Assembly (NCBI RefSeq): GCF_003575965.1
Contig: NZ_QWJJ01000014.1
Span: 1-64,000, forward strand
DNA length: 64,000 bases
DNA from: Pseudooceanicola sediminis
GTDB taxonomy: Bacteria; Pseudomonadota; Alphaproteobacteria; Rhodobacterales; Rhodobacteraceae
Direction of reading: 5' to 3'
Part shown: piece after piece, positions 13,500-30,171 of the stretch
Position numbering within the stretch: the stretch's first letter is position 1
Layout: each line of letters begins with the position of its first letter
Notes under the pieces: generated by a model
Told to the model about the DNA's origin: nothing
Databases searched by the model: none
Seen by the model: the letters and a program-made list of their open reading frames with translations, nothing else
Translations under genes and position numbers: made by a program

Positions 13500-13528
13500 T
13501 TGACCCGAATTATCGCGCGGAGTAATTC
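13500..13528 (+). promoter_or_regulatory. Candidate promoter of metZ
   Basis: TTGACC and TAATTC are spaced by exactly 17 bp. The predicted transcription start is about 13534, just at the beginning of the SAM-II riboswitch, which supports the assignment. Confidence 0.7.
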
Positions 13529-13529
13529 C

Positions 13530-13590
13530 ATCCCCGTGGCGCTTTGTTACCGGATTGCGGGCCACGTTAAACATCCCGCTAAAGAGGTCG
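13530..13590 (+). promoter_or_regulatory. SAM-II riboswitch (metA motif)
   Basis: The RNA has the SAM-II architecture. P1 pairs CGTGGC at 13535-13540 with GCCACG at 13561-13566, the loop contains TTTGTTACCGGATTGC, and the 3' part has the signature GCCACGTTAAAC followed by GCTAAAG at 13578-13584, which forms the pseudoknot with the P1 loop. This motif is known from alphaproteobacterial metA/metZ leaders and senses S-adenosylmethionine. It precedes metZ, as expected for repression of methionine synthesis when SAM is abundant. Confidence 0.93.
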
Positions 13591-13598
13591 AGGATAGG

Positions 13599-13634
13599 AA
13601 GCCCCTTTCGCTTGACCGCGTCTGGGGTTTTTTT
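13599..13634 (+). terminator. Riboswitch-linked intrinsic terminator
   Basis: AAGCCCC at 13599-13605 pairs with GGGGTTT at 13624-13630 (one G-U), followed by a run of seven T. It lies between the SAM-II aptamer and the metZ start, so it is the likely expression platform and suggests control by transcription termination. Confidence 0.75.
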
Positions 13635-18558: not shown

Positions 18559-20307
18559 ATGCCCACCCAGATCTCCCGCGCCGATTACGCCGCGATGTTC
18601 GGCCCCACCACCGGCGACCGCCTGCGCCTTGCCGATACCGACCTCATCATCGAGGTCGAGCGTGACCTGACCGCCGAACGCGCCGCCCTGGGCGGCGGCG
18701 GCAATGGGCCCCGGTACGGCGAAGAGGTCAAGTTCGGCGGCGGCAAGGTGATCCGCGATGGCATGGGGCAGTCGCAGAAAACCCGCGACGAGGGCGCCGT
18801 CGATACCGTGATCACCAATGCCCTGATCGTCGACCATTCCGGCATCTACAAGGCCGACGTCGGCCTGCGCGACGGTCGCATCCACAAGATCGGCAAGGGC
18901 GGCAATCCAGACACCCAGCCGGGTGTCGACATCATCGTCGGTCCCGGCACCGAAGTCATTGCAGGCGAGGGGAAAATCTTGACCGCAGGTGGGTTTGACA
19001 GCCATATCCACTTCATCTGCCCGCAGCAGATCGAAGATGCCCTGCACTCCGGTCTGACCACCATGCTGGGCGGCGGCACAGGCCCCGCGCACGGCACCCT
19101 TGCCACCACGGTCACGCCCGGCCCCTGGCACATGGAACGCATGTTGCAGGCCGCCGATGCCTTTCCGATGAACCTCGCTTTTGCGGGCAAGGGCAACGCC
19201 AGCCTGCCCGCCGCGCTTGAGGAACAGATCCGCGCCGGGGCCTGCTCGCTCAAGCTGCACGAAGACTGGGGCACCACCCCCGGTGCCATCGACTGCTGCC
19301 TGTCGGTGGCCGATGACTACGACGTGCAGGTGATGATCCACACCGATACGCTGAACGAGAGCGGTTTCGTTGAAAATACCGTCAAGGCCATGAAAGGACG
19401 GACAATTCACGCCTTTCATACCGAGGGTGCAGGCGGTGGCCACGCCCCCGACATCATCAAGATCTGCGGCGAGGAACATGTCCTGCCGTCCTCGACCAAC
19501 CCGACGCGTCCCTTCACCCGCAACACCATCGACGAGCATCTGGATATGCTCATGGTCTGTCACCACCTCGACAAATCCATCCCCGAAGATGTCGCCTTTG
19601 CCGAAAGCCGCATCCGCCGCGAAACCATCGCGGCCGAGGATATCCTGCACGACATGGGTGCCTTTTCCATCATCGCCTCCGACAGCCAGGCCATGGGCCG
19701 CGTGGGCGAGGTGCTGATCCGCACCTGGCAAACCGCTGACAAGATGAAGAAACAGCGTGGTCGCCTGCCCGAGGAAACTGGCGATAACGACAACTTCCGC
19801 GTCCGCCGCTATATCGCGAAATACACCATCAACCCGGCGATTGCCCATGGCCTCAGCCATCAGATCGGCTCCATCGCCGAAGGCAAGCGCGCTGACCTCG
19901 TGCTGTGGAACCCCGCCTTCTTCGGCGTGAAACCCGAGATGATCCTGATCGGCGGCTCGATCGTTGCCGCGCAGATGGGCGACCCGAACGCCTCGATCCC
20001 GACGCCGCAGCCGGTCTATACCCGCCCGATGTTCGGCGCCTACGGCCGCGCTGTCGAGAATTCCGCCGTGGTGTTCGTCTCCGCCGCCGCGCAGGCCGAA
20101 GGGGTGGGCGAACGCTACGGTCTGGCCAAGCAGACGGTCGCAGTCCTCAACACCCGCAACATTTCCAAGCGTGACCTGATCCTGAACGACGCGCTGCCCC
20201 AGATCGAAGTGAACCCGGAAACCTACGAAGTGCGCGCCGACGGAGAGCTGCTGACCTGCGAACCTGCGACCGAGCTGCCGATGGCACAGCGCTACTTCTT
20301 GTTCTGA
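18559..20307 (+). CDS. ureC: Urease subunit alpha
   Basis: UreC is the catalytic subunit with the di-nickel site. Visible motifs are [14 protein letters not shown] (nickel His pair), [17 protein letters not shown], the carbamylated lysine in [12 protein letters not shown] near residue 230, [10 protein letters not shown] and [13 protein letters not shown] (nickel His), the flap MVCHHLD, and [10 protein letters not shown] with the nickel Asp. At 582 residues it is about 13 longer than the usual 569; the extra residues are a Gly-rich insertion ([14 protein letters not shown]) near residues 36-50 just before [10 protein letters not shown]. The start has a GGAG ribosome site seven bases upstream. 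Confidence 0.98.
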
Positions 20308-25078: not shown

Positions 25079-26473
25079 ATGAAAAACTTTCCGATGTTTC
25101 TGCGCATGAGCGGACGGCGCGTCGTGATCTGTGGCGGCGGTACCGAAGCGGCGCGCAAGACCCGCCTTGTGCTCAAGACCGAGGCCAGCATCGTCATCGT
25201 CGCGGATCAGCTCGACCCTGAGCTTGCCGGTCTCGTTGCCTCTGGTCGCGCCACTCACCTGACCCAGGCTGCGCCTGACACCTTCGACAATTGCGCGTTG
25301 TGCTTCATCGCGACAGGGGACGAGACGGCGGATCTTGCCTTTGCCGCGCTTGCCCGCGCTGCCGGCGCCGTCGTCAACGTGGTCGATCGGCCCGAACATT
25401 GCGATGCCTTCACCCCCTCTATCGTCGACCGTGATCCGGTGGTCGTGGCCATCGGCACCGAAGGGATGGCACCGGTGCTTGGCCGCTCGATCAAGACCGA
25501 CATCGAGGTGATGCTGGACCCGCGCCTGGGCACCTTCGCGGCCCTTGCCGGGCGTCTGCGCGACGCCGTGGCGGAACGCATCGCACCCGCCTCGCGGCGC
25601 GCCTTCTGGGAATGGGCCTTTACCGGTGATGCCTTCGACAAGCATCGAAAGGGCGACGAACACGCCGCTGCGGATATGTTGAAGGCGGCGATTGCGACGG
25701 GCGCGGCCCCTGAAAACAAGGGTCGTATTTCCCTCGTGGGCGCTGGCCCCGGTGCCCGCGACCTGTTGACGTTGCGTGCCGTGCGTCGCCTGCAAGAGGC
25801 CGATGTTATCTTCTACGACCGCCTTGTCGACCCAGAGGTGCTGGAACTGGCGCGCCGCGACGCCGACCGCATCTATGTCGGAAAGGAGGTCGGCGCCCAC
25901 GCCTGGCCACAGGATCGGATCGACCGCCTGATCGTGGCCGAGGCCGGCAAGGGTCTGCGCGTCGTGCGCCTGAAATCCGGCGACCCCTCGATCTTTGGCC
26001 GCGCCGGCGAGGAGATCGCCGCCGCCCGTGCCGCCGGAATCGAGATCGAGATCGTGCCCGGCATCACAGCCGCCTCTGCCGCCGCCGCCGCGATGACGCG
26101 CCCGCTGACCGAGCGTGGCGAAACAGACACCTTTGTGATCACCACCGGCACCTGCCGCCCCGGCGATGCTGAGCCAGACTGGACGCCGCTGGCGCGACCG
26201 GGCACTGCCATGGCCTTTTACATGGCGGTGGATCGCGCCGCCCATGTCGAGGCGAACCTGCTGAATGCAGGTGTGCCCGGCGACTGCACGGTCGAAGTCG
26301 TCTGCTCGGCCTCCACCAGGCGCGAACGTCGCCTGAGCACGCACTTGTCCGGACTGGCGCAGGCGCTGGAACGTCACCAGATGGCCAGCCCCGCGATCTT
26401 GCTGGTGCGGTATTCCAAGGTGCAGGGTGCCCTGTCCAGACACCGGGCCGCCGTCAGCCAGGGGGAACTCTGA
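25079..26473 (+). CDS. cysG: Siroheme synthase (CysG type)
   Basis: The 464-residue trifunctional enzyme makes siroheme from uroporphyrinogen III, as needed by assimilatory nitrite and sulfite reductases. The N-terminal dehydrogenase/ferrochelatase domain has RRVVICGGGTEAARKTRL near residue 12 and FIATGDETADLAFAA. The C-terminal methyltransferase starts near residue 216 with GRISLVGAGPGARDLLTLRA and includes DRLVDPEVLELAR, RLKSGDPSIFGRAGEE and VPGITAASAAAA. ATG 25079 is chosen by domain start; the preceding 19 in-frame residues are doubtful. The nearby channel and cyanase suggest a role in inorganic nitrogen use. Confidence 0.95.
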   Translation: MKNFPMFLRMSGRRVVICGGGTEAARKTRLVLKTEASIVIVADQLDPELAGLVASGRATHLTQAAPDTFDNCALCFIATGDETADLAFAALARAAGAVVNVVDRPEHCDAFTPSIVDRDPVVVAIGTEGMAPVLGRSIKTDIEVMLDPRLGTFAALAGRLRDAVAERIAPASRRAFWEWAFTGDAFDKHRKGDEHAAADMLKAAIATGAAPENKGRISLVGAGPGARDLLTLRAVRRLQEADVIFYDRLVDPEVLELARRDADRIYVGKEVGAHAWPQDRIDRLIVAEAGKGLRVVRLKSGDPSIFGRAGEEIAAARAAGIEIEIVPGITAASAAAAAMTRPLTERGETDTFVITTGTCRPGDAEPDWTPLARPGTAMAFYMAVDRAAHVEANLLNAGVPGDCTVEVVCSASTRRERRLSTHLSGLAQALERHQMASPAILLVRYSKVQGALSRHRAAVSQGEL

Positions 26474-26956
26474 AAGGCGGACCGTCAGAGTTTGCTGCAA
26501 ATATCGGCAATTTTCCCTTATTTCGCAGCGGCTGACGGATTCGTGATACATCTTTGTTGTCGCCGGGGGCGGTCCCGGCAACATACGTGAATGACGACAC
26601 CGAAAGGTGCCGTACAGGAACCGCCGCAATGGCGCGGCAATTTCCATCAGGTGCCCCGATGAGGGCCTGCAGCAACGGCGCTGCGACTTCGATCCACCCT
26701 TGGTGGCTTCGTGGGTGCATGGCCGTCTTTCACCATGTTCCCGGATAGAAACCTGCGTGACGCCGGACCGGACCCGGTGCGCGCCGCGCTCTTGGAACAG
26801 GTCCCGGATGCAGGCGCACAGATCATCTCACGCGCCTCTCGGGCCGCCGACAGTTCGGCCCTCCTCACTCCGCCCCCGCACCCACGTTTCCGCCCCATTC
26901 CTCACCCACTGAATCCAGAACAGACCTCAACCCCTGACCCACAGAAAGGAACTGAA
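26474..26956. other. Long leader region before the formate/nitrite channel gene
   Basis: No gene is supported in these 483 bases, although the channel frame is open upstream to 26711. Several GC-rich segments could pair, for example CACCC/GGGTG around 26696-26716. This would fit a regulated leader, as known for nitrate/nitrite genes under NasT-type antitermination, but no defined motif or terminator was identified. Confidence 0.4.
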
Positions 26957-27796
26957 ATGGCATATGTCACCCCGGCCGAGTTTGCGGCCAAGATGGTCGA
27001 AGCCGGCGAAGCCAAGATCTTCATGTCCACAAAGGACACCCTGATCCGCGCCTATATGGCGGGCGCGATCCTGGCCCTTGCTGCCGCCTTCGCGATCACT
27101 GTCACCGTGAACACCGGCAACCCGCTGATCGGCGCGTTGCTGTTTCCCGTCGGCTTCTGCATGCTCTACCTGATGGGGTTTGACCTGCTGACCGGGGTCT
27201 TTACCCTGGTCCCGCTGGCGCTGATCGCCAAACGCCCCGGCTGCGACATGAAGGGGATGCTGCGCAACTGGGGGCTGGTCTTTGTCGGCAACTTCGCGGG
27301 CGCGATGACCACCGCTGTCTTCATGACGATCATCGTGACGATGGGCTTTACCGAAGAACCCAATGCGATCGGCGTCAAGATCGGTCATATCGGTGAGGGG
27401 CGCACCCTGGGCTATGCCGCCGCCGGGGCAGGGGGCATGCTGACCCTGTTCGTGCGCGCCGTCATGTGCAACTGGATGGTGTCGACAGGCGTTGTCGCGG
27501 CGATGATGTCGACCTCGGTCTCGGGCAAGATCATGGCGATGTGGATGCCGATCCTGGTGTTCTTCTACCTCGGGTTCGAACACTCCATCGTCAACATGTT
27601 CCTGTTTCCCAGCGGCATCATGATGGGCGGCCAGTTCACCTGGGCCGACTATTTCCTGTATAACGAAATCCCGACAGTGATCGGCAACCTTGTCGGTGGG
27701 CTGACCTTTGTCGGCGGCATGATCTACTCCACCCACTACAAGACTTCGCCGTCGCGGCCGCAGCCCTCGGCTGTCGTCAAGATGCCTGCGGAATAG
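26957..27796 (+). CDS. Formate/nitrite-family (FNT) channel
   Basis: The 279-residue membrane protein belongs to the FocA/NirC family of pentameric anion channels. It has about six hydrophobic segments and family signatures: FPVGFCMLYLMGFDLLTGVF (first half), MCNWMVSTGVVAAMMS, and GFEHSIVNMFLFPSGIMMGG, which contains the central conserved His. In FNT proteins the His controls permeation of formate, nitrite or related anions. Here the neighbours are siroheme synthase and cyanase, so nitrite or cyanate are plausible cargo; this is inference. A good ribosome site (AAAGGA) precedes the ATG, and a terminator follows. Confidence 0.92.
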   Translation: MAYVTPAEFAAKMVEAGEAKIFMSTKDTLIRAYMAGAILALAAAFAITVTVNTGNPLIGALLFPVGFCMLYLMGFDLLTGVFTLVPLALIAKRPGCDMKGMLRNWGLVFVGNFAGAMTTAVFMTIIVTMGFTEEPNAIGVKIGHIGEGRTLGYAAAGAGGMLTLFVRAVMCNWMVSTGVVAAMMSTSVSGKIMAMWMPILVFFYLGFEHSIVNMFLFPSGIMMGGQFTWADYFLYNEIPTVIGNLVGGLTFVGGMIYSTHYKTSPSRPQPSAVVKMPAE

Positions 27797-27803
27797 TGCT
27801 GAG

Positions 27804-27838
27804 GAGAGGCCCGGCATCCAGTCGGGCCTCTCGCTTTT
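27804..27838 (+). terminator. Intrinsic terminator between the FNT channel and the phosphatase-kinase
   Basis: A perfect ten-base-pair stem (GAGAGGCCCG/CGGGCCTCTC) with a nine-base loop is followed by GCTTTT. Because the next gene starts within 40 bases, read-through or a downstream promoter must supply its transcript, so this may lower expression of the distal genes. Confidence 0.8.
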
Positions 27839-27881
27839 GCCCGTGACCAATGTGCCCGTGACCCATTTGCCCGTGACCATG
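27837..27881 (+). repeat. Three tandem 15-bp repeats at the start of the phosphatase-kinase gene
   Basis: Three copies of (T/G)TGCCCGTGACC(A/C)(A/T)(T/G) run from 27837 to the ATG at 27879. They read in frame as PVTN-VPVTH-LPVTM and supply TTG, GTG, TTG and ATG as possible starts. The first copy overlaps the terminator T-run. Confidence 0.75.
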
Positions 27882-29606
27882 CCAAAGGACGCACCAGTGC
27901 CGGAACAGCTTTCGGTCTCCATCGGCCAGTATTCTGCCGCTGGCCTGAAACCGTCCAACCAGGATTTCCACGGCGCAATGGTGCCTGACGGCCAGGCCCT
28001 CGCGCTCAAGGGCGTGACGCTGGCGCTGGCCGATGGCATCTCTTCGTCTGAGGTCAGCCACCTTGCGGCCCGGACCAGCGTGCGCAGCCTGCTCGACGAT
28101 TACTACTGCACCTCCGACGCCTGGAGCGTGCGCACCGCCGCAACCCGCGTCATCGCAGCGACCAACGCCTGGCTATATGCCGAAAACGCCCGCATTCCCG
28201 GCCTCGACCATGATCGCGGTCAGGTCTGCACCCTCGCCGTGCTGATCCTCAAAGGCGCCGAAGCACATGTCCTGCATGTCGGGGACAGCCGCGTCTGGCG
28301 CCTGTCGGGCGAAAGTCTGGAACCGCTGACAGCCGACCACCGCCTGACCCATTCCTCGACCGAGAGTTACCTCGATCGCGCCATCGGCCTGCGCGCCGAG
28401 GTCGAGGTCGACTATACCCGCCTGCCATTGGCACGGGGCGACATCTACCTGCTGACCACCGATGGCGTGCATGACCACATGGAGGCGCGCTTTGTCGCCC
28501 GCACCCTGCGCGAGGTGCCCGACCTGACCCTAGCCGCCCGCCTGATCGCAAAGGAGGCGCTGGCGCGTGGCAGTACCGACAACCTGACGATCCAGATTGC
28601 GCGTATCGACGCCCTGCCGACGGGCACCCTGTTTGAGACGAGCCTGCCAGTGCCGCAGGGGCTGCGTGCCGGCAACACGCTCGACGGGTACACGCTGTTG
28701 CGCCAGATCCACGCCAATCACCGCTCGACCATCTTTCTGGCGACCGATCCTGCCGGCGCCCGGGTCGCGCTGAAGATTCCGGCGGCCGAGATCCGCGAGG
28801 AGTCGACCTACATGCGCCAGTTCCTGATGGAGGAATGGATTGCCCGGCGCATCACTTCGGCACATGTGCTGCGGGCGGCCACGCCCCCGGCCCGGCGCAG
28901 TGCCCTCTATGTCGTGACCGAGTTTGTCGAGGGTGTGACCCTGCGCCAGTGGATGACGGACCACCCCCACCCCAGCCTTGATCAGGTGCGCGACATCGTC
29001 GGGCAGGCCATACGTGGCCTGCGCACCTTTCACCGCAGCGACATGCTGCACCAGGATCTGCGCCCTGAAAACATCATGATTGACCGCGCTGGAACGGTAA
29101 AGATCATCGACCTTGGCGCGGCCCGTGTCGCGGGCGTGCAAGAGGCCGCGCCGGTCCCCGGCGACGCCCCGATCCTCGGCACCTTGCAATATGCCGCGCC
29201 GGAGTATTTCAGCGGCGATCCCGTGGGCTGGCGCGCCGATCTCTTCTCTCTGGGCGTTATTGCTTATGAGATGCTGACCCACCGTCTGCCGTACGGCACG
29301 CAGGTGTCCAAGGTTCGGACGCGGCGCGATGTCGCCCGCCTCGGCTATCGCTCGGCACGTGACGACGACAATGGCGTGCCCGACTGGCTGGATGAGGCGC
29401 TGAGGCGCGCCTGTCACCCCGATGCGTCTCGCCGGTTCGATGCGCTGTCCGAATTCGACGCGGCGCTGCGCAGTCCCGGTGCCGCCTATGGCCGCCGCCA
29501 TCCGGTGCCGTTGGCGCAACGACACCCCCTGCGGTTCTGGCAGGGGTTGTCGGCACTTCTGGCGCTTTTGTGCCTGATCTTGCTGACAACAGTCACCACC
29601 CCCTGA
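27879..29606 (+). CDS. PP2C phosphatase fused to a Ser/Thr kinase with a C-terminal membrane anchor
   Basis: From ATG 27879 the protein is 575 residues. Residues about 10-235 form a PP2C-type phosphatase with ADGISSSE, HVGDSRVWRL, TTDGVHDH and GSTDNLT. Residues about 255-530 form a Hanks-type kinase: VALKIPA (ATP lysine near 299), HQDLRPENIMID (catalytic loop, HRD changed to HQD), DLGAAR in place of DFG, and APEYF. A single hydrophobic segment at 552-574 would anchor it with the domains in the cytoplasm. Fusions of this order are known beside nitrate/nitrite transporter genes in other proteobacteria. It lies between the FNT channel and cyanase. Upstream GTG/TTG starts are possible. Confidence 0.9.
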   Translation: MPKDAPVPEQLSVSIGQYSAAGLKPSNQDFHGAMVPDGQALALKGVTLALADGISSSEVSHLAARTSVRSLLDDYYCTSDAWSVRTAATRVIAATNAWLYAENARIPGLDHDRGQVCTLAVLILKGAEAHVLHVGDSRVWRLSGESLEPLTADHRLTHSSTESYLDRAIGLRAEVEVDYTRLPLARGDIYLLTTDGVHDHMEARFVARTLREVPDLTLAARLIAKEALARGSTDNLTIQIARIDALPTGTLFETSLPVPQGLRAGNTLDGYTLLRQIHANHRSTIFLATDPAGARVALKIPAAEIREESTYMRQFLMEEWIARRITSAHVLRAATPPARRSALYVVTEFVEGVTLRQWMTDHPHPSLDQVRDIVGQAIRGLRTFHRSDMLHQDLRPENIMIDRAGTVKIIDLGAARVAGVQEAAPVPGDAPILGTLQYAAPEYFSGDPVGWRADLFSLGVIAYEMLTHRLPYGTQVSKVRTRRDVARLGYRSARDDDNGVPDWLDEALRRACHPDASRRFDALSEFDAALRSPGAAYGRRHPVPLAQRHPLRFWQGLSALLALLCLILLTTVTTP

Positions 29607-29645
29607 CCCCGATGAACCCCAACCCCGATGAAAAGGAAAAATCTC

Positions 29646-30095
29646 ATGGACATGATGACCAGGGAAGACGTCACCGCGATGATCCTGTCTGCCAAGCGTC
29701 AGGCAGGCCTGACGTGGGAAGGCATTGCCGAAACCATCGGCATGTCACCCGTCTGGACGCATTCCTGCGCGATGGGCATGAACGCCATGCCCGCCGACAA
29801 GGCCGGCGCGATGGTCAAGGCCCTCGGGCTACCGCAAGAGGCGGCGTCGGTGCTTCAGGAAAGCCCGACGAAGGTCTGGGCGCAGGCGGTGCCCACGGAC
29901 CCCTGCATCTATCGCCTGTATGAAATCGTCGGCGTCTACGGCCCCACCATCAAGGCGCTGATCCATGAAAAGTTCGGTGATGGCATCATGTCGGCCATCG
30001 ACTTCGATCTGCACGTGATCCGCGTGCCGCATGAAAAGGGCGATCGGGTCAAGATCGAGATGTCTGGAAAATACCTCGGGTACAACGCCTGGTAA
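29646..30095 (+). CDS. cynS: Cyanate hydratase (cyanase)
   Basis: Cyanase converts cyanate and bicarbonate to carbamate and CO2, giving ammonia. The 149-residue protein (155 if ATG 29628 is used) has an N-terminal helix-turn-helix-like domain (AKRQAGLTWEGIAETIGMSP) and the C-terminal catalytic domain with the active-site Arg and Glu in IYRLYEIVGVYGP and Ser in DGIMSAIDFD. It ends KYLGYNAW, as in the family. ATG 29646 is favoured by an AAGGAAA ribosome site. No cynT carbonic anhydrase or CynR regulator is adjacent, unlike the E. coli operon. Confidence 0.96.
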   Translation: MDMMTREDVTAMILSAKRQAGLTWEGIAETIGMSPVWTHSCAMGMNAMPADKAGAMVKALGLPQEAASVLQESPTKVWAQAVPTDPCIYRLYEIVGVYGPTIKALIHEKFGDGIMSAIDFDLHVIRVPHEKGDRVKIEMSGKYLGYNAW

Positions 30096-30135
30096 CAGCC
30101 CCCGACACGCCGCAGGTCAGACTGCAAGACGAAGG

Positions 30136-30171
30136 AAAAAGGCCATTCTGCTCGCGCGGAATGGCCTTTTT
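30136..30171. terminator. Bidirectional intrinsic terminator after cyanase
   Basis: AAAAAGGCCATTC pairs perfectly with GAATGGCCTTTTT around a ten-base loop. It serves cynS on the plus strand and the converging protein gene at 30236 on the minus strand. Confidence 0.93.

What the first reader, a model, noticed from the sequence alone, without database searches (positions are those of the whole stretch)
26957..30171. FNT anion channel, PP2C-kinase fusion and cyanase in one short unit
A FocA/NirC-type channel, a membrane-anchored protein with both phosphatase and kinase domains, and cyanase lie on one strand within 3.2 kb, behind siroheme synthase. The kinase has HQD for HRD and DLG for DFG. Phosphatase-kinase fusions beside nitrate/nitrite transporters are known, but their substrate is not settled to my knowledge. 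Here one protein carrying opposing activities may gate a channel that brings cyanate or nitrite to cyanase. This is inference from gene order and domains.
Basis: partly seen in the sequence, partly recalled or inferred. Interest (0 to 1): 0.75.

Follow-up and report, generated by a model that had tools for sequence, protein, structure and literature searches.

The report
Kinase-phosphatase paired with nitrite channel
A marine bacterium carries a nitrite-type channel next to one membrane-anchored protein that should both add and remove phosphate groups, and the pairing recurs so often in related bacteria that the protein probably acts as a reversible valve on nitrite (and perhaps cyanate) uptake.

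Summary
In detail: an FNT channel, a PP2C-kinase fusion and cyanase lie head to tail at 26957-30095, then a terminator. In 81 loci the channel lies directly before the fusion in 75; in a phylum sample 30 of 30 fetched channels of this FNT subfamily have the fusion beside them. Of 11 sampled fusions without FNT, nine have a NarK-type nitrate/nitrite permease next to them, eight on the same strand; in a tree the FNT-linked fusions form one clade. The constant partner is thus a nitrate/nitrite permease of either fold. New here: before the channel lie two hairpins with ANTAR/NasT-type hexaloops, with covariation and an overlapping terminator-like stem; relatives have them before nirB or FNT, one before a lone cynS. 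So the unit probably belongs to the NasT nitrate/nitrite regulon. Cyanase is optional (24 of 81, plus 4 nearby), so cyanate as a side substrate is plausible. That the fusion phosphorylates the channel is inferred; no phosphosite is shown. Ten searches of an open-access library listed no test of this protein.

The parts
26623..26638 (+). Leader hairpin P1, GCCGC-AAUGGC-GCGGC, hexaloop with A1 and G4 (ANTAR/NasT type)
   Evidence: criterion A1/G4 from PMC3369931 passages
26668..26685 (+). Leader hairpin P2, UGCAGC-AACGGC-GCUGCG, hexaloop with A1 and G4
26675..26726 (+). Terminator-like stem that uses the loop and 3' arm of P2, so the two exclude each other; weak U tract behind it
   Evidence: -26.5 kcal/mol, taken in preference to P2 when both are offered; z -1.77 and weak U tract, so inferred
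26957..27796 (+). FNT-family channel, the only one found in the genome
   Evidence: PF01226 208.6 bits; one match in own genome
27879..29606 (+). PP2C phosphatase - Hanks-type kinase fusion with C-terminal membrane anchor (a TTG start at 27837 is also possible)
   Evidence: Pfam; catalytic residues and anchor in relatives
29652..30095 (+). cynS, cyanase (ATG at 29628 also possible), the only cynS match in the genome at E up to 1e-10
   Evidence: NCBIfam; own genome
30137..30170 (+). Intrinsic terminator of the unit
   Evidence: z -6.2, 0 of 200 shuffles as stable
25079..26473 (+). Siroheme synthase CysG, neighbour upstream; siroheme serves NirB (general knowledge)
   Evidence: PRK10637 519.8 bits over 400

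Best explanation
This is a nitrite-uptake unit of the NasS-NasT nitrate/nitrite regulon. Without nitrate/nitrite the leader folds into a terminator; with it, NasT is freed, binds the two hexaloop hairpins and lets transcription run into FNT, fusion and cynS (shown: hairpins, covariation, a nasT gene in the genome; inferred: binding and response). The FNT channel brings nitrite in for NirBD, which is encoded elsewhere in this genome. The tail-anchored fusion sits at the membrane and phosphorylates or dephosphorylates the permease to close or open it when cytoplasmic nitrite or nitrogen supply changes (inferred). Cyanase uses or removes cyanate that comes through the same channel (inferred).
For: FNT directly before the fusion in 75 of 81 loci; fusion beside 30 of 30 fetched FNT of this subfamily in the phylum sample, 4 of them shared with the class sample; 9 of 9 in the class sample; 12 of 12 fusion genomes of the family have the FNT, 11 adjacent. 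Of 11 sampled fusions without FNT, eight have a NarK-family permease directly upstream on the same strand and one divergently. The tree needs 3 partner changes against 12.6 in shuffles; FNT-linked fusions form one clade, 100/98. nirBD lies within 9 kb in 40 of 81, so the permease is the more constant partner. Leader: tandem hexaloops in 22 of 70 upstream regions against 0.24 in shuffles and 6 of 1272 random stretches; covariation; in the own genome the model gives 73.2 bits here, next 19.4. Active sites intact in 106 proteins. Precedent: overproduced FNT NitM kills cells on nitrite, and reversible control was postulated there (PMC4390861 Discussion).
Against: No phosphosite could be nominated: the N-terminal Ser/Thr conserved in this FNT subfamily are also kept in the four fusion-less members, and C-end Thr263 is Glu in 14 of 95. 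Those four family genomes show that the channel can do without the fusion. Three Hyphomicrobium fusions have no FNT in the fetched stretch. L146 has neither permease. 48 of 70 loci show no tandem hexaloops in the 400 bases tested. The U tract of the attenuator is weak. The model did not find the leader I see before nrtA of the same genome.
Confidence: 0.55

Rival explanations
1. The unit is about cyanate: the FNT is a cyanate (or cyanate/nitrite) channel for CynS and the fusion controls cyanate entry.
For: Of 30 cynS loci read in the class sample (best 30 of 44 genomes with a match), 23 follow a Nrt/Cyn-like ABC transporter, 4 follow the fusion and 3 neither, so FNT-fusion takes the transporter's place. 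cynS joins FNT without the fusion in G048 (L118). A lone cynS in G039 has the same kind of leader. In print: nitrate/nitrite transporters may take up cyanate (PMC6627978 passages); nirC beside cynS was proposed as cyanate importer (PMC12342949, PMC10753782 passages).
Against: cynS is directly behind the fusion in only 24 of 81 loci, plus 4 within 9 kb; none was found within about 1.5 kb of the fusions without FNT. Nitrite uptake by the FNT NitM was not inhibited by cyanate (PMC4390861). NasS-NasT answers to nitrate/nitrite (PMC3795266 abstract and passages).
Confidence: 0.15
2. The fusion acts on another nitrate-assimilation protein (NirB, NasA, NasS/NasT or a PII protein) and sits beside the permease only because all are co-transcribed.
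For: These genes are found in the same clusters in many loci; there is no direct evidence of channel phosphorylation.
Against: The permease is the more constant neighbour (75 against 40 of 81 for nirBD); FNT-fusion pairs stand alone on two plasmids opened; the C-terminal anchor places the fusion at the membrane.
Confidence: 0.25
3. Gene order without functional meaning beyond shared induction.
For: A shared leader would explain co-occurrence inside one operon (inference; leader).
Against: Linkage spans alpha-, beta- and gammaproteobacteria, different upstream regions and neighbours, and a change of permease fold.
Confidence: 0.05

Closest known systems
Records annotated 'bifunctional protein-serine/threonine kinase/phosphatase' beside 'formate/nitrite transporter family protein'
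   Same: Same protein and neighbour in 4 of 4 plasmid regions opened (Acinetobacter, Azospirillum, Ideonella, Methylobacterium)
   Different: The records give no function or substrate
NasH, nitrite transporter of Paracoccus denitrificans nasTSABGHC
   Same: Nitrite transporter gene in a NasT-controlled nitrate operon with leader hairpins HI and HII (PMC5424462 passages)
   Different: No kinase beside it in the passages seen; here FNT stands in its own unit away from nirB. That NasH is of the FNT family is recalled
NitM, FNT nitrite transporter of marine cyanobacteria
   Same: FNT for nitrite; toxic when overproduced; reversible regulation postulated (PMC4390861 passages and Discussion)
   Different: Postulated control is through a C-terminal domain of the channel, not a kinase
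LCIA, FNT-family protein (PDB 9v2a)
   Same: Nearest solved structure by sequence, 110 bits, against 51 for FocA and 29 for NirC
   Different: A protein of a green alga (recalled); what it carries was not looked up here
ANTAR (NasR/NasT/EutV) dual-hairpin leaders
   Same: Two hexaloop hairpins with A1 and G4 and a competing terminator (PMC3369931 passages)
   Different: Linker of 29 nt and weak U tract here; no such family among the Rfam matches of the window at gathering score
nirC-cynS neighbourhood of nitrifiers
   Same: FNT beside cyanase, proposed as cyanate importer (PMC12342949, PMC10753782 passages)
   Different: No kinase-phosphatase in the passages seen

Membership tests
FNT channels (PF01226) | Full-length FNT domain over cut-off | tested here: met
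   208.6 bits, profile 1-239 of 240
FNT channels (PF01226) | Pore histidine and threonine | tested here: met
   His of FEHS and Thr79 align with solved FNT proteins (LCIA and a formate transporter); Thr79 in 95 of 95 of the subfamily and 10 of 10 others; pore roles from the abstract of PMC9380403 in a listing
FNT channels (PF01226) | Transports nitrite | not testable with these tools
   Below the NCBIfam cut-offs of FocA and NirC; inferred from context
PP2C phosphatases | Metal-site and motif residues (NQD, ADG, GDS, TDG, DN; motifs recalled) | tested here: met
   10 positions checked: nine kept in 106 of 106, one in 105
Hanks-type Ser/Thr kinases | Lys of VAIK, Glu of helix C, catalytic Asp and Asn, Asp of DFG (motifs recalled) | tested here: met
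   K299, E318, D393, N398, D411 in 106 of 106
Hanks-type Ser/Thr kinases | Glycine-rich loop | tested here: not met
   HAS-x-RS type stretch instead in most, SDGRYS-like in the most distant
Hanks-type Ser/Thr kinases | RD arginine | tested here: not met
   Q in 98, R in 8 of 106; the window has Q
Cyanase (CynS) | TIGR00673 over curated cut-off | tested here: met
   148.7 over 113.3 bits
ANTAR/NasT leader | Two hairpins with hexaloops A1, G4 | tested here: met
ANTAR/NasT leader | Terminator that excludes P2 | tested here: inconclusive
   Overlapping stem found, U tract weak
ANTAR/NasT leader | NasT protein in the genome | tested here: met
   One ANTAR protein, before an NMT1_2 protein (taken as NasS from its place) and an NrtA-like one
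ANTAR/NasT leader | Binding by NasT and nitrate response | not testable with these tools
   Needs mobility shift or reporter

The most novel reading that the evidence does not exclude
A dedicated family of one-protein phosphorylation switches for nitrate/nitrite permeases: the same kinase-phosphatase passed from NarK-type transporters to FNT channels and sets their opening by reversible phosphorylation, giving proteobacteria a fast shut-off of nitrite (and cyanate) entry.
Probability: 0.4. Interest if true: 0.8.

Novelty: new variant of a known kind. Interest (0 to 1): 0.6.

Why it matters
How bacteria stop toxic nitrite from flooding in through FNT channels is open; reversible control was postulated for cyanobacterial NitM without a mechanism (PMC4390861 Discussion). 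A protein with both opposing activities, tied to nitrate/nitrite permeases of two folds, is a concrete candidate that one deletion and one uptake assay can test. The leader says when the unit is probably made and ties cyanase to the nitrate/nitrite regulon.

Tried and rejected
FNT-fusion gene fusion: long reading frames suggested it for L035, L047, L061, L066, L069 and L074; one search showed a stop codon between the genes in each, an artefact of alignments running past the stop. Rejected.

Channel phosphosites: Ser24, Thr25, Thr28, Thr259 and Thr263 were looked at; none separates linked from unlinked FNT, and only four unlinked FNT of the subfamily were at hand. No site is claimed.

Longest-frame choice of neighbours picked antisense frames in this GC-rich DNA; replaced by tblastn with reference proteins. 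I named those references by eye; a later scan bears out NirB, NirD, CysG, the nitrate ABC ATPase and NirA over cut-off, the LysR regulator and the NMT1_2 binding protein as families, and the nitrate ABC permease as best match below cut-off; the 'NasA' reference scores highest with formate dehydrogenase alpha (475.6 bits) and then assimilatory nitrate reductase NasC (459.4), both under cut-off, so nasA-like is meant. The 'NasT' reference (L036) had no NCBIfam match; the own-genome NasT has ANTAR.

Weak model hits in G040, G018 and G189:C7 (E 4e-4 to 0.009): no reference gene beside them except a 35% ATPase piece at G018; taken as chance. The nrtA leader of the same genome shows two short hexaloop hairpins and a strong terminator by eye and fold, but the model did not find it.

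Alignment A1 misplaced stem arms of L010 and L075; they were left out of A2 and L025 was added (13 rows). L004 was chosen by eye. The other rows were found by pairing, so percent paired is biased upward.

Tree: 61 of the 107 proteins, chosen by me; the FNT-linked rows with low identity from the phylum sample are not in it; long branches meet at the base; midpoint root. One of the 107 (L172) proved a partial copy of L143, hence 106.

L147: its NarK-like neighbour was first labelled by eye; one search failed on wrong coordinates, one search scanned a wrong frame (no family), searches found the NarK-family protein on the opposite strand.
Full report
What is there. The three genes stand as described: FNT 26957-27796, fusion 27879-29606, cynS 29652-30095, + strand, closed by a strong terminator at 30137-30170. 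The window is contig C8 of a 4.44 Mb genome; the nearest named relative in the scan is Pseudooceanicola spongiae (88% fusion identity, L002). The genome has one FNT, one such fusion and one cynS match. Its nirB lies on another contig, C17, in a cluster with an ANTAR protein (NasT), binding proteins of the NMT1_2 family, an ABC permease and a molybdopterin oxidoreductase, read as nasT-nasS-nrtABC-nirB-nasA. So the unit is a satellite of that system.

The fusion. Pfam gives PP2C_2 and Pkinase. In 106 distinct full-length relatives the checked PP2C residues and the kinase Lys, Glu, Asp, Asn and Asp are kept (one G-to-D change). The glycine-rich loop is replaced by an HAS-x-RS stretch in most. HQD instead of HRD is found in 98 of 106, including the four nearest NarK-linked proteins read; HRD in 8, one of them FNT-linked (L143). 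A C-terminal hydrophobic segment is present in 103 of 106. Pfam shows no further distinct domain, so the enzyme is probably a cytoplasmic, tail-anchored switch (inference).

The channel. The nearest solved structure by sequence is LCIA (110 bits), ahead of formate channels (65 and 51 bits) and NirC (29 bits). It scores below the NCBIfam cut-offs for FocA and NirC, so the substrate cannot be read from the name.

Linkage. A scan of genome contigs with the fusion confirmed 328 places; the best 80 were kept, and these plus the window are the 81 loci counted. FNT lies within 400 bases upstream on the same strand in 75; of the other six, two are cut at the contig start (L012, L053), three (L029, L031, L057) show no FNT and one has cynS in between (L040). 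cynS follows within 400 bases in 24 and lies within 9 kb in 4 more; nirB/nirD within 9 kb in 40; a nasA-like gene in 14; some nitrate/nitrite assimilation reference within 10 kb in 45 of 81 (contig ends limit these counts).

Wider samples. Family, 198 genomes: 13 have a fusion match, 12 at 50% identity or more and one (G161) at 36%; all 12 have FNT of this subfamily (73% or more), adjacent in 11 and about 9 kb away in one (G039). That FNT occurs in 16 genomes; the four without the fusion have it between nirBD and a nasA-like gene, one with cynS (G048). Eleven further genomes have only distant FNT matches (one a 58-residue piece) and no fusion match. Class, 385 genomes: fusion in 18; FNT at 68% or more in 9, all 9 with the fusion beside it (G304 split between two contigs); the two at 48-53% have none in the 1.5 kb read. 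Phylum, 244 genomes: 33 FNT places at 63% or more, 30 fetched, 30 of 30 with the fusion next to them or one cynS away; four of the 30 were already in the class sample.

Partner swap. The family and class samples hold 11 fusions without FNT beside them (34-47% identical). Eight have, 14-126 bases upstream on the same strand, a protein whose best NCBIfam match is the NarK family of nitrate/nitrite MFS transporters (E 3e-71 to 1e-97; three of eight over the curated cut-off). A ninth, L147, has a NarK-family protein upstream on the opposite strand (E 4e-82, below cut-off). L146 has neither and L145 is cut off. FNT-linked fusions can be as distant as these (L143 44%; L222 33% and L224 40% over the piece read), so distance alone does not set the partner. 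A tree of 61 proteins puts the 48 FNT-linked rows used in one clade (100/98, with the three Hyphomicrobium rows inside) and the NarK-linked ones outside; three changes of partner are needed against 12.6 in shuffles. Long branches meet at the base and the root is a midpoint. The simplest reading is that the protein follows the nitrate/nitrite permease function, not one fold.

Leader. Between cysG and FNT lie two hairpins with hexaloops AAUGGC and AACGGC (26623-26638, 26668-26685). A at position 1 and G at position 4 of both loops are published marks of ANTAR targets (PMC3369931 passages). A scan for such pairs in 400 bases upstream of the first gene (nirB if near, else FNT, else the fusion) found 22 of 70 loci, against a mean of 0.24 (maximum 2) in 50 rounds of shuffles and 6 of 1272 random stretches of the same loci; some of the 22 look like chance pairs. 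The pair precedes FNT where FNT comes first and nirB where nirB comes first. On 13 aligned leaders 99.2% of cells pair, 4 of 10 pairs change on both sides, and the covariation score exceeds all 500 shuffles; rows were mostly picked for pairing. A competing stem uses the P2 loop and 3' arm.

Specificity of the leader. A model of it finds in the own genome this place at 73.2 bits and nothing else above 19.4. Over 64 sources (60 of the 81 loci, L092 and three plasmid loci; 1.34 Mb) it gives 15 matches at E up to 0.05: 13 training rows and two more (L011, L032), these also upstream of the unit. Among the 186 other genomes two have weak hits, and one fusion genome has a second weak hit. One further hit, G039:C34 (L207), lies directly before a lone cynS, 76% identical to CynS of the window, and its own fold shows two A1/G4 hexaloops. 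This ties cynS to the regulon apart from FNT and fusion, on one example.

Cyanase. Of the 30 cynS loci read in the class sample (best 30 of 44), 23 follow a Nrt/Cyn-like ABC transporter, 4 follow the fusion and 3 neither. FNT-fusion thus stands where a cyanate transporter usually stands. Nitrate/nitrite transporters were suggested to carry cyanate (PMC6627978 passages) and nirC beside cynS was proposed as cyanate importer (PMC12342949, PMC10753782 passages); against it, nitrite uptake by the FNT NitM was not inhibited by cyanate (PMC4390861).

Mechanism. Shown by sequence: conserved channel-fusion pair, intact opposing active sites, membrane anchor, NasT-type leader, NasT in the genome. Inferred: NasT binding, nitrite as main substrate, phosphorylation of the channel. 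The need for a reversible brake has precedent: overproduced NitM kills cells on nitrite and post-translational control was postulated (PMC4390861 Discussion).

Literature. Ten searches of an open-access library listed no paper whose title, abstract start or opened passages describe the function of this fusion; subscription papers are mostly not covered. NasT control of P. aeruginosa nirBD is cited in PMC8092218 (passages), NasT leader hairpins of Paracoccus and Bradyrhizobium in PMC5424462, PMC3795266 and PMC6759348 (passages). Passages of PMC2907700 did not bear on the fusion.

Verdict. Observation confirmed; interpretation partly supported, and widened: the fusion is a companion of nitrate/nitrite permeases of two folds, and the unit probably belongs to the nitrate/nitrite regulon.

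Noticed in passing
window 18751-19038, - strand: Rfam 5'ureB sRNA match (120 bits) lies antisense inside the urease alpha gene (18559-20307 +); it may only reflect conserved urease coding sequence.
   Followed up: no
window 13526-13603, + strand: SAM_alpha riboswitch (67 bits).
   Followed up: no
L092 3910-4045 (own genome C17, before the nrtA-like gene): Another likely NasT leader: GGC-AAUGGC-GCC and GAGC-AAAGCC-GCUC hairpins and a strong terminator with a T run; not found by model R1.
   Followed up: partly
L207 1501-1660: A lone cynS with its own NasT-type leader in a genome whose FNT and fusion lie on another contig.
   Followed up: partly
L015-L018, L044, L058, L080: In these loci a divergent LysR gene stands before nirB; in the six with enough upstream sequence (all but L080) no hexaloop pair was found: perhaps another regulator for the same nirB-nirD-FNT-fusion unit.
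   Followed up: no
L029, L031, L057 (Hyphomicrobium): Fusions of the FNT clade without FNT in the fetched stretch; partner unknown.
   Followed up: no
L146 (G543): Divergent fusion with neither FNT nor NarK directly upstream.
   Followed up: no
window 26957-27796: By sequence the channel is nearer to the FNT protein LCIA than to FocA or NirC among solved structures.
   Followed up: no
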